DNA of 33,035 nt from Planctomycetota bacterium. Lineage in GTDB: Bacteria > Planctomycetota > UBA11346. The notes under the pieces are model-generated. The model saw only the letters and a program-made list of their open reading frames with translations, was not told the origin of the DNA and did no database searches. Location of the stretch: the NCBI GenBank assembly GCA_025055595.1, contig JANWWU010000006.1:1-33035 (forward strand), in the 5' to 3' direction. A program made the position numbers and the translations under genes. Positions within the stretch are counted from its first letter, which is position 1. Every line of letters begins with the position of its first letter. Shown here one piece after another: positions 502 through 33,035 of this stretch.

Positions 502-2661
502 CTACGCGCTGGCATGCCCGCCGGTCACCTCCGCCAGCATCCGCACAATGTCGGCCTCGATCGCGCGGATATCAGCCTCGATCTCCTCGAGCGGTCGAGG
601 AGGGGTGTACCGGTAGAAGTAGCGGTTGAAGTTGATCTCGTAGCCGATGATGCCGACGCGGCCGTCTTTGTGGTCGCGCTTGGTGGTGTCGATCCAGGCA
701 TCCGGCACGAACGGGGAGACTTCGCGCTCGAAGAAGGCCCGCACGCTGGCCGGCACGCCGTCGTCATCCACCGGGTCATCGCCGACAGGCAGCGGCACGG
801 TTTCGGTGTCGCGCAGTTCGGGGTCAGGCTCGGGTCGGTTGTCCGTGTCGCGGCAGATCGCCGCCGTCTCGTCGCGCTCGGCCAGCGCTGCGAGAATGGC
901 TCGACGCGCCGGTGCCGGCAGCTTGAGCCCGGCTCTGGCGGCAGCCGCGTCGAGCACGCGCTCGAACTCGGCGCGGTCCTTGAAAAGGGTCTGCGGCAGC
1001 CCGGCAAGCAGCGCGCGGATGGCTTCCTGCAGTTTGCGACCCTCTTCCTCCTCCTTCGCACCGGCCGCTCCTTTCTTTTTCGACTGCGTGAGCGCTTGAA
1101 AGCCCTTCTCCTCCTCGAGCCGCGCGATGCGCTCGGGACTAGCCTGGAAGTTGAGCTTGAGCGGCCGCTCGACCGTGATCTTGCGGTAGCCGAAGTGCGT
1201 GGTCGGGAAGATGCGGCTGACGACGACTTCCTCCTCCCGGCCGTCCTTCACGATGCGGCGCGTCTCGCCATCGCGGAAGTTGGCGAGCAGCCGCACGATG
1301 TCCAAGGCTTTCTCCGGCGGGATCTCGCGCCGCTTGTCCCCGAGGCTCTTTCTCATCGGCGCCCAGAACGAGCTGGCGTCGATCAGCTGCACCTTGCCCC
1401 GGCGCTCGGGCGCCTTGCGGTTGGTGAGCACCCAGACATAGGTCGCGATGCCGGTGTTGTAGAAGAGCTGCTCGGGCAGCGCGATCAGCGCTTCCAGCAG
1501 GTCGTGCTCGAGGATGTGGCGGCGAATTTCGCTTTCGCCGCTGCCGGCATCGCCGGTGAAGAGCGGCGAGCCGTTCATGATGATCGCGATGCGCGAACCG
1601 CCTTCCTTCGGGCTCTTGGCGTGCGCCAGCATGTGCAGCAGGAACAGCAGCTGCCCGTCGCTGATCCGCGGCAGGCCCGGTCCGAAGCGGCCGGCCGCGC
1701 CGCGCTCGTGCTCGGTGCGCACCGCTTCCTCGTCGCGCTTCCAGTCCTTGCCGTAGGGCGGATTGGCGATCAAGTAATCGAAAGCGCGTCCCGCGTGCTT
1801 GTCATTCGAGAGCGTGCTGCCGTAGGCGATATGGTCGGCATCGCGCCCGGTCGGATCCTTCATGAACAGATCCGACTTGGACACAGCCCACGTTTCGGGG
1901 TTGACCTCCTGGCCGAAGAGGTGTATCTCGGCCAGCGGATTGATCGGCCCGCGGATGACTTCGCCGTTGCGACGCCAACCCTTCGTGATGTGCTCTTTGG
2001 CGATCGTCAACATGCCCCCCGATCCGCAACAAGGGTCGTAGACGGTGCAGACGATGCCTTGGCGCCGGATGCGCTGCTCGTCGCCAGCGAGCATCAGCTC
2101 GACCATCAGGTGTACGACATCGCGCGGCGTGAAGTGCTCGCCGGGGTTCTCGTTCAACGCTTCGTTGAACTTGCGAATCAGCTCCTCGAAAATCGTGCCC
2201 ATCGTCGGATTATCGATCTTGTCGGGGTGGAGATCGACCTGCTTGAAGCGTTCGAGGACCTGGAACAGCAGGTTCGCCTCGTCGAGCTTGCTGATCGTGT
2301 TGTCGAAGTCGAAGCGCTCGAGCACCTCGCGCATGTTCGGGCTGAAGCCAGCGATGTAGTGGCGCAGGTTCGCCGCCAGGTTCTGGGGGTCGGCGAGCAG
2401 CCTCTCGAAGTCGAAGGGCGAGGTGTTGTAGAAGGCGAAGCCTGAGACGCGGCGCAGCTGGGCATCGGGATCCTGCAACCCCCTGGTCTTCAGCTCGGCA
2501 CATCGTGCGAGCACCGCGCTTTTCGTCGGCGCCAGGACGCAGTCGAGGCGCCGCAGGACGATCAGCGGCAGGATCACATCCTGATACTTGCCGCGCTTGA
2601 AAGTGTCGCGGATGAGGTCGGCGATACCCCAGAGGAAGCTGACGATCTCGCTGTGCTGCAT
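502..2661 (-). CDS. hsdM: Type I restriction-modification system DNA methyltransferase subunit (HsdM)
   Basis: N-terminal 'SFLWGIADLIRDTFKRGKYQDVILPLIVLRRLDCVL', GEHFTPRDVVHLMVEL, SAM motif 'YDPCCGSGGML' and catalytic 'IANPPYG'. Confidence 0.95.
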   Translation of the reverse strand: MQHSEIVSFLWGIADLIRDTFKRGKYQDVILPLIVLRRLDCVLAPTKSAVLARCAELKTRGLQDPDAQLRRVSGFAFYNTSPFDFERLLADPQNLAANLRHYIAGFSPNMREVLERFDFDNTISKLDEANLLFQVLERFKQVDLHPDKIDNPTMGTIFEELIRKFNEALNENPGEHFTPRDVVHLMVELMLAGDEQRIRRQGIVCTVYDPCCGSGGMLTIAKEHITKGWRRNGEVIRGPINPLAEIHLFGQEVNPETWAVSKSDLFMKDPTGRDADHIAYGSTLSNDKHAGRAFDYLIANPPYGKDWKRDEEAVRTEHERGAAGRFGPGLPRISDGQLLFLLHMLAHAKSPKEGGSRIAIIMNGSPLFTGDAGSGESEIRRHILEHDLLEALIALPEQLFYNTGIATYVWVLTNRKAPERRGKVQLIDASSFWAPMRKSLGDKRREIPPEKALDIVRLLANFRDGETRRIVKDGREEEVVVSRIFPTTHFGYRKITVERPLKLNFQASPERIARLEEEKGFQALTQSKKKGAAGAKEEEEGRKLQEAIRALLAGLPQTLFKDRAEFERVLDAAAARAGLKLPAPARRAILAALAERDETAAICRDTDNRPEPDPELRDTETVPLPVGDDPVDDDGVPASVRAFFEREVSPFVPDAWIDTTKRDHKDGRVGIIGYEINFNRYFYRYTPPRPLEEIEADIRAIEADIVRMLAEVTGGHASA

Positions 2662-2853: not shown

Positions 2854-4104
2854 TCAGCGCGGCCCGAGGTCGAGGAGTTCGGCGAGCCAGCGCAGGCGCT
2901 CGGGGTCGTCGGCGTGACGGCGCGCGTAGCGGTAGAGCGGGTGCAGCAGCTTGTTGGCGACGCGCTCGAGGCTGTAGCGCAGCTCGTCGCGATCGATCCC
3001 CGGGCAGCGCGCGGCGAGGCGCGCTTCCTCGGCTGCGACCAGGTCGCGGAAGTAGCTCGCGAGCTCGGACAGCAGCTCCTGGCCGCTGCTGAGCGCGGCT
3101 TGGCGCCAGGCGGCGAGCGCGCTCTCGACGATGGCGCTGGCCGCTGCAACCTCCGCCTGGCGGTTGCCGAGGTGCTCGGCGACGATGCGCTCGAGGTGGT
3201 CGATGTTGAAGACGAAGAGGTCGTCGAGCTCCGCCGCCGCCGGTTCGACGTCGCGCGGCACGGCGAGGTCGAGGCAGACGAGGGGGGCGCGCCGCCGCGC
3301 CATCGCCTGCGCCAGCGCCGCGGCGCCGATCACCGGATGCGGGGCGGCGGTGCTGCTCAGCACGACATCGTGCTCGGCGAGCAGCGCCGGCAGCCGCTCC
3401 CAGGGGGCGACCTCGGCCGAGAACTGCGCGGCAAGGGCGGCGGCGCGCTCGGCGCTGCGGTTGACGATCGTCTGCACGCGCATCCCGGCGGCGACCGCGT
3501 AGCGCGCGGCGAGCTCGGCGTTCTCGCCGGCGCCGACAAGCAGCAGCCGCCGCCCGCCGAGGTCGCCGAGCACCTGCCGCGCAAGCTCGATGGCGACCGA
3601 GGCGATGCTCAGGCGGTGGCTGCCGATGCCGGTGGCGCTGCGCACCTCCTTGCCGCAGGCGATCGCGCGCTGGAACAGCGGATGCAGCGCCGGGCCGCAC
3701 AGCTGGGCGGCGCGCGCCGCTTCGTAGGCGCGGCGCACCTGGCCGAGGATCTCGGCTTCGCCGAGGACCAGGCTCTCGAGGCCGGCGGCGACGCGGAAGA
3801 GATGCCGCGCGCAGTCGGCGCCGACATGCCAGTAGGCGTGGGCGGCGAGGGCGCCGGCATCCCAGCCGCCGGCGGCGAGCCCGGCCTCCACCGCGGCGCG
3901 GGTCAGCGGTGCGCAGACATAGAGCTCCCAGCGGTTGCAGGTGGCGAGGAGCAGGACTTCCTCGGCGGCGAGGATGGCGCGCAGCGCGGAGGCCGCGGCC
4001 ACGGGATCCGGCGTCGCGGCGTGCAGCCGTTCGCGCAGGGGCAGCGCGCTGCGGTGATGATCGATGCCCCAGACGGCGATGGGGGGCAGCGCCGGCTCAG
4101 CCAT
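2854..4104 (-). CDS. hemA: Glutamyl-tRNA reductase
   Basis: 'GIDHHRSALPLRERL', 'LLLATCNRWELYV', 'LVLGEAEILGQVRRAYEAA', 'LLLVGAGENAELAARY'. Confidence 0.93.
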   Translation of the reverse strand: MAEPALPPIAVWGIDHHRSALPLRERLHAATPDPVAAASALRAILAAEEVLLLATCNRWELYVCAPLTRAAVEAGLAAGGWDAGALAAHAYWHVGADCARHLFRVAAGLESLVLGEAEILGQVRRAYEAARAAQLCGPALHPLFQRAIACGKEVRSATGIGSHRLSIASVAIELARQVLGDLGGRRLLLVGAGENAELAARYAVAAGMRVQTIVNRSAERAAALAAQFSAEVAPWERLPALLAEHDVVLSSTAAPHPVIGAAALAQAMARRRAPLVCLDLAVPRDVEPAAAELDDLFVFNIDHLERIVAEHLGNRQAEVAAASAIVESALAAWRQAALSSGQELLSELASYFRDLVAAEEARLAARCPGIDRDELRYSLERVANKLLHPLYRYARRHADDPERLRWLAELLDLGPR

Positions 4105-30117: not shown

Positions 30118-31302
30118 TCACGCTGTGCCGCGGTCGCCGCTGCGTCCGAGCGTCAGCAGGACGCCAGCGAGGCAGCAGAGCGCGAGGACGGCGAACACGC
30201 CAGGACCCCCGTGGGCCAGGACCCAGCCGCAAGCGGCGTTGCCGAGCAGGCCGGCACCAGCGCCGACCAGCGCCAGCGCCGCGAATGCGAGGCCCCGTTC
30301 AGCCGCCGGCGCCAGCTCGGCCAGCCAGGTTTTCTCGGTGCCTTCCAGCGCGCCCTGGATGAGGCCCCACAGCAGACCGGCAAGCAGCAGCGCCGGCCCC
30401 TCACCGACCGCGAGCAGCGCGCAGTCGGCGGCCGCCAACGCCCACAGCGCCTGCAGGGCTCGGCGCGGCCCCACGCGCACGGTCAGCGCCCCGGCGGCGG
30501 CCGCGGCCAGGGCCTGGATCAGGCCGAGCGCCGCCCAGCCGAGGCAGAGCTGCCACAGCGGCCAGGCGGCCTGCGGCGCCGTTCCTGACCAGCCAGCGAC
30601 ATGCATGAGGATCAGCAGGGGGCTGAGGCGCAGGGCGAGGCTGGCTGCGGCGATCGCGAGCAGGGGCCGGCGCAGGATGGCGGCGCGCGGCCACCAGCCG
30701 AGGGGCCGGCCAGCGCCCGTGGCCGGCGCCTCGGGAAGCTGGCGGTCTTGCAGGCCGCCGGCGAGCCAGGGGACGAGCAGGGCGAGGGGAGCCAGCGCGA
30801 GCACGGCGACCCACAGGCCTTCGGTCGGCACAGCCCAGGCGACCGCGGCGGCAGCCAGGGCCCCGAGCATCGCGCCGCCGTGATCCATCCAGCGCAGGCG
30901 GGCGTAGGCGCGGGCGCGCTGCTCGCCCTCGGTCCAGTCGGCGACCAGCGCATCGGCGGCGCTGCTGCGCAGCCCCTTGCCGAGGCGATCGAGGACGCGG
31001 CAGGCGACGATCCACCACCACCAGGCGGCGAGCATGCCGACGGCAGTCAAGGGCCGAGCGACGGCATTGGTCAGGTAGCCGGCGCGCACCCAGGGCACCC
31101 GCCGCCGCTGAGCATCGCTCGCCCGCCCGCTGAACAGGCGCAGGCCTTGGCTCACCGCGTCGGCCAGGCCCTCCATCACCCCGATCCAGCCGACGGCGAC
31201 CCCGCTCGGCAAGAGCGGCGTCAGGAAATCGAGCGTGCAGTCATTGATGAAGTGCAGCCAGCCCAGGCGTCGCACCTGCGCCGCCGCCGCTACATCTGGC
31301 AT
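30118..31302 (-). CDS. MFS transporter
   Basis: 12-TM-like protein with 'HFINDCTLDFLTPLLP' start and 'ACRVLDRLGKGLRSSAADALVADWT'. Confidence 0.85.
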   Translation of the reverse strand: MPDVAAAAQVRRLGWLHFINDCTLDFLTPLLPSGVAVGWIGVMEGLADAVSQGLRLFSGRASDAQRRRVPWVRAGYLTNAVARPLTAVGMLAAWWWWIVACRVLDRLGKGLRSSAADALVADWTEGEQRARAYARLRWMDHGGAMLGALAAAAVAWAVPTEGLWVAVLALAPLALLVPWLAGGLQDRQLPEAPATGAGRPLGWWPRAAILRRPLLAIAAASLALRLSPLLILMHVAGWSGTAPQAAWPLWQLCLGWAALGLIQALAAAAAGALTVRVGPRRALQALWALAAADCALLAVGEGPALLLAGLLWGLIQGALEGTEKTWLAELAPAAERGLAFAALALVGAGAGLLGNAACGWVLAHGGPGVFAVLALCCLAGVLLTLGRSGDRGTA

Positions 31303-31506: not shown

Positions 31507-32628
31507 TCACTGATCAGAGGACGAAGACGAGGCGAAGTACTCGGCAAGACTCTGCAAAAAATCCGGGGACAATGATTTTTCGAGGCGCAGCTTGTAGATT
31601 CCTTCCACGTGTTGCCGCAGCGCTGAGAAAGAGAGATAGCCGCATACTTCGGGCAATGGTTTCTCGCGCAGTTTGAATGTTGGGCGCAGAATTTCCTGCG
31701 CGACTTTCTCGCGTCGCTCATCGGGGGCTACGAGGTACAGACGGATGTCTAGATTCGGCTGCAATGCCAGGAGATCGCTCATCCGTAACAGCCCCGAGTA
31801 GATGGAGGTGGTAGATTCCACCTCGAACGCCGCGACAATCGAGTTGTTCTTCAGCCACAAAACATCTATCAACTCGATGGTGCGCTGCGTCGCCTCATTG
31901 AATTGCAACGGAAGCTCTTCGAGCATGTGCGGCACAGACCCGTAATTGTGCACGCGGGAGCGATCGTTGCGCGCCACCCACACCTTGAGGCCCATGTCAG
32001 CGCCCAATTTTATTAGGAGATGCTGGATCTCGGTATGCTGTGACCGCTCTTCCTGTTGCTGAGGTCGAGCATCCTCGAGATCTGCCGTTTCCGGGACCGT
32101 CACCAAGGTTTTCACATGCATCTTGCCAGAATGCTGTTCGGCTTTGAACATCGGTTGGCGAGCGAGCTTTCGGGCATCAACCGGCCGGGTTATCGGCTCG
32201 CGATCGGCCTCTTGAAGCTTGCGCAGAATCAAATCGCCATCTTGGCGCCTTTTGAAGAGGTTCGGACTGCCACGGACAAAGCCTTTGAACTTACCTGCGT
32301 CGTGAGGACCGGTGTAAAAATCCACCTGTCCCTCCAACTGCTGCATTGGGACGCCGTGCTCAGCATTCAAGAGGATGAGAGGTTTGACGTCCAGGCAGAT
32401 GGGAAAGTCTCTTTGACACCAAAGAGAGTGAGTATTGCTGCTTTTTCCAAGGACCTCCAGCGCACCGACCCACCGCATCACGCCTGTTAGATAGCACAGC
32501 AAGATGTCACCAGGCTGGATCTTTTCGACGACTGGCTTTCTGCGTTGCCTAAACCCTGTCGTCGTCCCGCCGGCCTTGCGGAACTCATCCCATGTAGTTC
32601 CGGTGAAGAGCTGAAGCCAGTAGTTCAT
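31507..32628 (-). CDS. EVE (PUA-like) domain protein fused to C-terminal PD-(D/E)XK-like nuclease domain
   Basis: N-terminal 'MNYWLQLFTGTTWDEFRKAGGTTTGFRQRRKPVVEKIQPGDILLCYLTGVMRWVGALEVLG'; C-terminal 'HTEIQHLLIKLGADMGLKVWVA...IELIDVLWLKNNSIVAAFEVESTTSIYSGLLRMSDLLAL'. Confidence 0.8.
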   Translation of the reverse strand: MNYWLQLFTGTTWDEFRKAGGTTTGFRQRRKPVVEKIQPGDILLCYLTGVMRWVGALEVLGKSSNTHSLWCQRDFPICLDVKPLILLNAEHGVPMQQLEGQVDFYTGPHDAGKFKGFVRGSPNLFKRRQDGDLILRKLQEADREPITRPVDARKLARQPMFKAEQHSGKMHVKTLVTVPETADLEDARPQQQEERSQHTEIQHLLIKLGADMGLKVWVARNDRSRVHNYGSVPHMLEELPLQFNEATQRTIELIDVLWLKNNSIVAAFEVESTTSIYSGLLRMSDLLALQPNLDIRLYLVAPDERREKVAQEILRPTFKLREKPLPEVCGYLSFSALRQHVEGIYKLRLEKSLSPDFLQSLAEYFASSSSSDQ

Positions 32629-32995
32629 ACATCAACTTTCATGCTTGCGATCACGCGCAGCGCGCACCTTCGTTCGTGATCTGATCGTCTGTGAAGTCCG
32701 GGATTGCCCCCTGCGCAGCACTTCCACGGCCACATTTATTCACTTGAAGATTGCCAGAAACAGAGGCCTACACAAAGAGGGCAGGGCGCAGGGGGATCCA
32801 TCCACCGAACCCCCTCTTATACTTGTACGCCTTCGCTTGCAAGATCGGCGGCAGAGCGCTCAAAAGAAAGCTGCCAACCAACGTCCGGACAACCAACATC
32901 CCTGGCTAGCAGATCTTGCTCGCTGCTGGTTGTTGGCCCTGAAAGTGGCTGGCTGTTGGCTCGTTGGTGGCTGGATTCATAACCCCTTGTCAATC

Positions 32996-33035
32996 TGGCG
33001 GCCCCGGCAGGACTCGAACCTGCGACAATGCAGTT
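32996..33035 (-). tRNA. tRNA 3' part (T-arm, acceptor, encoded CCA); isotype undetermined, cut by window end
   Basis: Reverse complement AACTGCATTGTC GCAGG TTCGAGT CCTGC CGGGGCC G CCA: perfect 5-bp T stem, TTCGAGT loop, 7-nt acceptor strand, discriminator G. The anticodon lies just outside the window. Confidence 0.92.

What the first reader, a model, noticed from the sequence alone, without database searches (positions are those of the whole stretch)
31507..32628. EVE-domain / PD-(D/E)XK-like two-domain protein: candidate modification-dependent restriction factor
N-terminal EVE-like PUA fold (class associated with reading modified cytosines) joined to a domain with E...(IDVLW)...(FEVE) nuclease-like spacing. 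It stands alone beside a tRNA, in DNA with visibly lower GC than the core. A single-gene defence system cutting modified phage DNA, or modified RNA, is plausible; the domain combination deserves testing.
Basis: partly seen in the sequence, partly recalled or inferred. Interest (0 to 1): 0.72.

Follow-up and report, generated by a model that had tools for sequence, protein, structure and literature searches.

The report
Modified-base reader fused to nuclease
This is a stand-alone bacterial gene for a two-part protein, a domain of the type that recognises chemically modified DNA or RNA bases joined to a DNA-cutting domain of the restriction-enzyme type, so it is most likely a one-gene defence that cuts phage DNA carrying modified bases; the design was predicted in 2020, but I found no report of it being tested.

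Summary
ORF 31507-32628 (minus, 373 aa) is real: 11 other full-length relatives share its architecture (34-61% identity). An AlphaFold model (pLDDT 86.8) shows an N-terminal EVE/YTH-type PUA fold and a C-terminal domain in the PD-(D/E)XK strand order. D255 and E269-x-E271 are invariant in 36 of 36 homologues (a BamHI-like ExE site); the proposed leading Glu is not conserved. No neighbouring gene family recurs. The gene's GC is 55% against about 77% nearby, and it lies 369 bp downstream of a tRNA-Arg. Two relatives also follow a tRNA or tmRNA, one flanked by an 18/19-nt tRNA repeat, which suggests mobility. Three relatives lie in defence islands. The host assembly (90% complete) has no C5-cytosine methylase, so a 5mC/5hmC-dependent nuclease would be safe there. 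Most likely it is a single-gene, Type IV-like modification-dependent endonuclease. The class 'EVE-PD(D/E)XK' was already predicted (Bell 2020, PMC7641849), so this is a new member of a known kind that I found no test of. Substrate and activity are untested here. Unexpectedly, the same nuclease domain with another N-terminus recurs in copper-resistance clusters.

The parts
31507..32628 (-). CDS, 373 aa, EVE + PD-(D/E)XK-type nuclease
   Evidence: homologues
32194..32628 (-). EVE-type (PUA superfamily) domain, about residues 1-145
32068..32160 (-). low-confidence linker, about residues 157-187
   Evidence: pLDDT below 50 at 160-166 and 169-187
31591..32067 (-). PD-(D/E)XK-type nuclease domain, about residues 188-346
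31864..31866 (-). codon of D255, predicted metal ligand (IDVLW)
   Evidence: invariant in 36/36
31816..31824 (-). codons of E269-V270-E271, predicted catalytic ExE (FEVE)
   Evidence: E269 and E271 invariant in 36/36
32997..33035 (-). 3' part of tRNA-Arg(TCT), cut by the contig end
   Evidence: whole tRNA on contig C95 (L124 403-480)

Best explanation
A single-gene, modification-dependent (Type IV-like) DNA endonuclease. Shown here: the gene, its EVE-type fold, its PD-(D/E)XK-like topology with an invariant D...ExE site, and the absence of a recurrent partner gene. Inferred: the EVE domain flips a modified base (most likely 5mC, 5hmC or a similar cytosine) out of the helix, as VcaM4I does; the C-terminal domains dimerise and cut nearby DNA with Mg2+ held by D255, E269 and E271; host DNA lacks the mark, so no protecting methylase is needed. 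The gene spreads as cargo, sometimes at tRNA or tmRNA ends.
For: EVE fold with VcaM4I among the matches; nuclease profile, topology and invariant residues; no recurrent neighbour; defence neighbours in L024, L087 and L088; no C5-cytosine methylase in the host assembly; characterised precedent VcaM4I; EVE-PD(D/E)XK predicted as type IV by Bell et al.; tRNA/tmRNA-adjacent copies.
Against: No activity data. Nuclease fold matches in the PDB are weak. The query's own Pfam EVE score is below cut-off. Two of the three defence-island copies lie beside DNA methylases, which an orphan modification-dependent enzyme would not need. A sister family with the same nuclease domain lies in copper clusters, so the domain is not limited to defence. 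The host assembly is only 90% complete.
Confidence: 0.55

Rival explanations
1. It is the cutting subunit or companion of an ordinary or NTP-dependent restriction-modification system that reads unmodified sites; the EVE-like domain would be a sequence-reading or docking module and the window copy an orphan.
For: L024 places it between a Z1 ATPase and a DNA methylase, next to a HATPase_c_3 ATPase; L087 has a methylase and an AlwI-type REase beside it; Z1 ATPases work with R and M proteins in CglI (abstract of PMC4267653).
Against: Most copies, including the window's, have no adjacent methylase, and no neighbour family recurs. In L087 the methylase already has its own REase.
Confidence: 0.17
2. 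It is a DNA repair or genome-maintenance endonuclease that recognises damaged or unusual bases, not a phage defence.
For: The sister family with the same nuclease domain sits in copper/heavy-metal resistance clusters without a recurrent methylase; copper damages DNA (own knowledge).
Against: The EVE version itself is rare and patchy (about 12 in about 690 genomes), of foreign composition in the window, and in defence islands in three cases.
Confidence: 0.12
3. It cuts modified RNA (for example tRNA or phage RNA).
For: EVE and YTH folds also bind RNA, and many structural matches are YTH-RNA readers; three members lie beside tRNA or tmRNA genes.
Against: Restriction-type PD-(D/E)XK domains mostly cut DNA (own knowledge). 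The tRNA placement is better explained by integration, given the 18/19-nt tRNA-Met repeat after the gene in L025.
Confidence: 0.08

Closest known systems
EVE-PD(D/E)XK predicted type IV restriction enzymes (Bell, Wolf and Koonin 2020, PMC7641849)
   Same: Same two-domain architecture and a fast-evolving EVE domain in a single-gene setting.
   Different: The paper gives the class only as a core architecture; I could not check whether this family is in its tables. Here the family is defined by an ExE site and tested for conservation and context.
VcaM4I (EVE-HNH endonuclease, PMC7897488)
   Same: N-terminal EVE domain, C-terminal nuclease, one gene; the folds match.
   Different: VcaM4I has an HNH nuclease; here it is PD-(D/E)XK-type. 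The pocket residues were not mapped one to one.
SRA-PD-(D/E)XK enzymes such as PvuRts1I and AbaSI (described in PMC12707154)
   Same: PUA-superfamily reader plus PD-(D/E)XK cutter, no partner needed.
   Different: Reader is EVE, not SRA; the order is reader-nuclease (PvuRts1I has the nuclease first).
'Type II restriction endonuclease' plasmid family (for example WP_174839321.1; PADLOC PDLC03534)
   Same: Homologous nuclease domain, about 40% identity over about 160 aa, same invariant residues.
   Different: Another N-terminal domain without a Pfam match; recurs in copper-resistance clusters.

Membership tests
EVE domain (PF01878, PUA superfamily) | Sequence profile match | tested here: met
   Query sub-threshold, relative L005 above cut-off, family profile to solved EVE-type proteins about 1e-8
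EVE domain (PF01878, PUA superfamily) | PUA-like fold close to EVE/YTH | tested here: met
   Foldseek PH1033 6.5e-7, MJECL36 1.3e-6, YTH domains, VcaM4I 5.5e-4
EVE domain (PF01878, PUA superfamily) | Pocket for a flipped modified base | tested here: inconclusive
   T9, aromatic F75 and R119 are conserved in the 12 members, but were not superposed on the VcaM4I pocket
PD-(D/E)XK nuclease superfamily | Core order alpha-beta-beta-beta-alpha-beta | tested here: met
   Model secondary structure 188-301
PD-(D/E)XK nuclease superfamily | Conserved D and (D/E)xK or variant | tested here: met
   D255 and E269-x-E271 invariant in 36/36; variant ExE instead of ExK
PD-(D/E)XK nuclease superfamily | Clear match to a solved member | tested here: inconclusive
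   Only weak matches, EcoT38I 0.035 and BsaWI 0.07, with the poorer model; no sequence match
Type IV modification-dependent restriction enzyme | Modified-base reader fused to or working with a nuclease, no protecting methylase required | tested here: met
   Architecture and no recurrent methylase partner
Type IV modification-dependent restriction enzyme | Cuts modified but not unmodified DNA; restricts modified phages | not testable with these tools
   Needs experiment
Type II restriction-modification system | Cognate methylase next to the nuclease gene | tested here: not met
   Searches of the host for four DNA-methylase families place the only one on this contig (HsdM-like) about 29 kb away
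VcaM4I-type EVE-HNH | C-terminal HNH nuclease | tested here: not met
   C-terminal domain matches REase_II; no HNH family hit

The most novel reading that the evidence does not exclude
A general base-surveillance nuclease module (invariant Q, D, D...ExE and SGxxRxxD residues) exists with exchangeable reader heads: the EVE version is a mobile, tRNA-anchored single-gene anti-phage enzyme, while a sister with another head has been recruited into copper-resistance clusters, perhaps to act on copper-damaged DNA.
Probability: 0.2. Interest if true: 0.7.

Novelty: new member of a known kind. Interest (0 to 1): 0.42.

Why it matters
If true, it is a compact one-gene restriction of modified DNA that combines an EVE reader with a PD-(D/E)XK cutter, a predicted class for which I found no characterised member in the open papers searched. 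It could serve as a tool for mapping modified bases. The shared nuclease domain also poses a testable question: why a restriction-type nuclease recurs in copper-resistance clusters.

Tried and rejected
A PDB sequence search with the query alone returned only designed ankyrin proteins and similar helix matches; rejected. A PDB search with the sister family's N-terminal domain returned coronavirus spike helices (best E 1.3e-5), rejected as helical coincidence. That N-terminus has a motif resembling a helix-hairpin-helix (IKGLGPAVAN...PFNTAIV), but no Pfam family was found in its 15 members beyond weak single hits, so no claim is made. No relative was found in the phage collection or IMG/VR at the sensitivity used. 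Integration repeats around the window gene: none of 13 nt or more from tRNA-Arg, so integration rests on relative L025 only. The first AlphaFold model (5 sequences, pLDDT 66) was replaced by the second (36 sequences, pLDDT 86.8). An m6A (YTH-like) reader was considered because of the YTH matches and cannot be excluded.

Full report
WHAT IS THERE. The ORF at 31507-32628 (minus) is intact and 373 aa long. The window is a whole contig (G000:C67, 33,035 bp). The gene lies alone between an MFS transporter gene (30118-31302) and the 3' part of a tRNA (32997-33035) cut by the contig end. Contig C95 of the same assembly overlaps the last ~450 bp at 96% and carries the whole tRNA-Arg(TCT) followed by unrelated genes, so it is probably the continuation. 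GC falls from about 77% to 55% over the gene; its GC3 is 65.5% against 88.6% in the MFS gene.

RELATIVES. One full-length relative came from the GTDB contigs (L002, Chloracidobacterium, about 60%) and ten more from about 690 sampled genomes of what appear to be two phyla: L003-L005, L086-L088 and L090-L093. They align end to end with the query (alignment A7). Many further proteins share only the nuclease half. In a tree of the nuclease domain the family with the other N-terminus forms one side of a branch (support 99/98). The EVE proteins cluster far more than shuffled labels would, but with L089 among them, so the tree does not settle how many fusion or replacement events occurred.

N-TERMINAL DOMAIN. 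Pfam EVE is sub-threshold on the query and passes on L005. Family profiles find MJECL36 and PH1033 at about 1e-8 to 1e-6. The second AlphaFold model (36 sequences, pLDDT 86.8, pTM 0.57) matches PH1033 (6.5e-7), YTH domains and VcaM4I (5.5e-4). The moderate pTM leaves the arrangement of the two domains uncertain.

C-TERMINAL DOMAIN. PADLOC calls it REase_II (4.4e-15). The model gives helix 188-211, strand 215-218, strand 256-260, strand 263-270, helix 276-289 and strand 296-301. This is the PD-(D/E)XK order, with D255 at the start of one central strand and E269/E271 at the end of the next. D255, W258, E269, E271, S278, R282, D285, Q202 and D222 are invariant in all 36 sequences; E200, the candidate helix-1 acid, is not. 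ExE in place of ExK is known from BamHI (own knowledge). Structural matches to restriction enzymes (EcoT38I, BsaWI) are weak and come from the first, poorer model; in the second search the listed rows were filled by EVE/YTH matches.

CONTEXT. No Pfam family recurs among the neighbours of the EVE-nuclease genes, so the gene has no fixed partner. Three copies lie in defence surroundings. L024 has a Z1 ATPase, a HATPase_c_3 ATPase, a DNA methylase and, a few kilobases off, a phage-type integrase. L087 has a methylase, an AlwI-type REase and a TIR-NTPase. L088 has a KAP NTPase, an HNH nuclease, an Eco57I-type methylase and an HKD/Snf2-type helicase. A nuclease-only relative (L089) lies beside DrmA and DrmB of a DISARM-like cluster. 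Three of 12 EVE-nuclease genes follow a tRNA or tmRNA on the same strand within about 650 bp: the window, L025 (tRNA-Met) and L093 (tmRNA). A rough calculation made after the fact, with assumed genome size and tRNA number, gives 1e-5 by chance. In L025 an 18/19-nt copy of part of the tRNA-Met anticodon arm lies just after the gene, as an integration site would leave. No such repeat was found in the window.

HOST. The host assembly (90% complete) has no C5-cytosine methylase. It has N6/N4-type methylases, one an HsdM-like gene at the far end of this contig. This fits, without proving, a reader of 5-modified cytosine.

MECHANISM AND STATUS. Shown: architecture, conservation, solitary and island contexts. 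Inferred from VcaM4I and from Bell et al.: base flipping, cleavage near the modified base, anti-phage role. EVE-PD(D/E)XK is in the literature as a predicted class. Searches of the open library found no characterised member, but subscription papers were not searched and Bell's supplementary tables could not be read.

SIDE FINDING. Proteins with the same nuclease domain and another N-terminus lie within 5 kb of copper or heavy-metal genes in about 10 of 14 annotated plasmid loci. By blastp with proteins of those plasmid clusters, 9 of 20 genomic loci give a hit (some only to two-component or MerR regulators), against 0 of 11 EVE-nuclease loci (Pfam tally). Two 30-kb control stretches from two of those plasmids show no copper genes. 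The controls are small and some plasmids may be related, so this is a lead, not a result.

Noticed in passing
L021-L023, L030-L036, L128-L131 (plasmids); L027, L028, L094, L101, L103, L106, L114 (genomes): Proteins with the same nuclease domain but another N-terminus (RefSeq 'type II restriction endonuclease', about 420-430 aa) recur next to copper/heavy-metal resistance genes and have no recurrent methylase.
   Followed up: partly
L025:2434-2452 and 3792-3810: An 18/19-nt direct repeat of part of the tRNA-Met anticodon arm brackets the EVE-nuclease gene, like an integration site holding a single gene and no integrase.
   Followed up: partly
window 502-2661, minus: HsdM-like N6 methylase of a type I restriction-modification system at the other end of the contig, where GC is also lower than in the core.
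   Followed up: no
L089:8654-17434: A nuclease-only relative sits beside DrmA and DrmB (DISARM-like) and an HNH protein.
   Followed up: no
window 32585-33035 versus G000:C95:1-442 (L124): The ends of two contigs of the assembly overlap at 96% identity with small indels: strain variation at the contig break, or a second copy of the site.
   Followed up: partly
L013, L014 (residues before the nuclease domain): A third kind of N-terminal domain, about 140 aa, precedes the same nuclease domain in some relatives; its family is not known.
   Followed up: no
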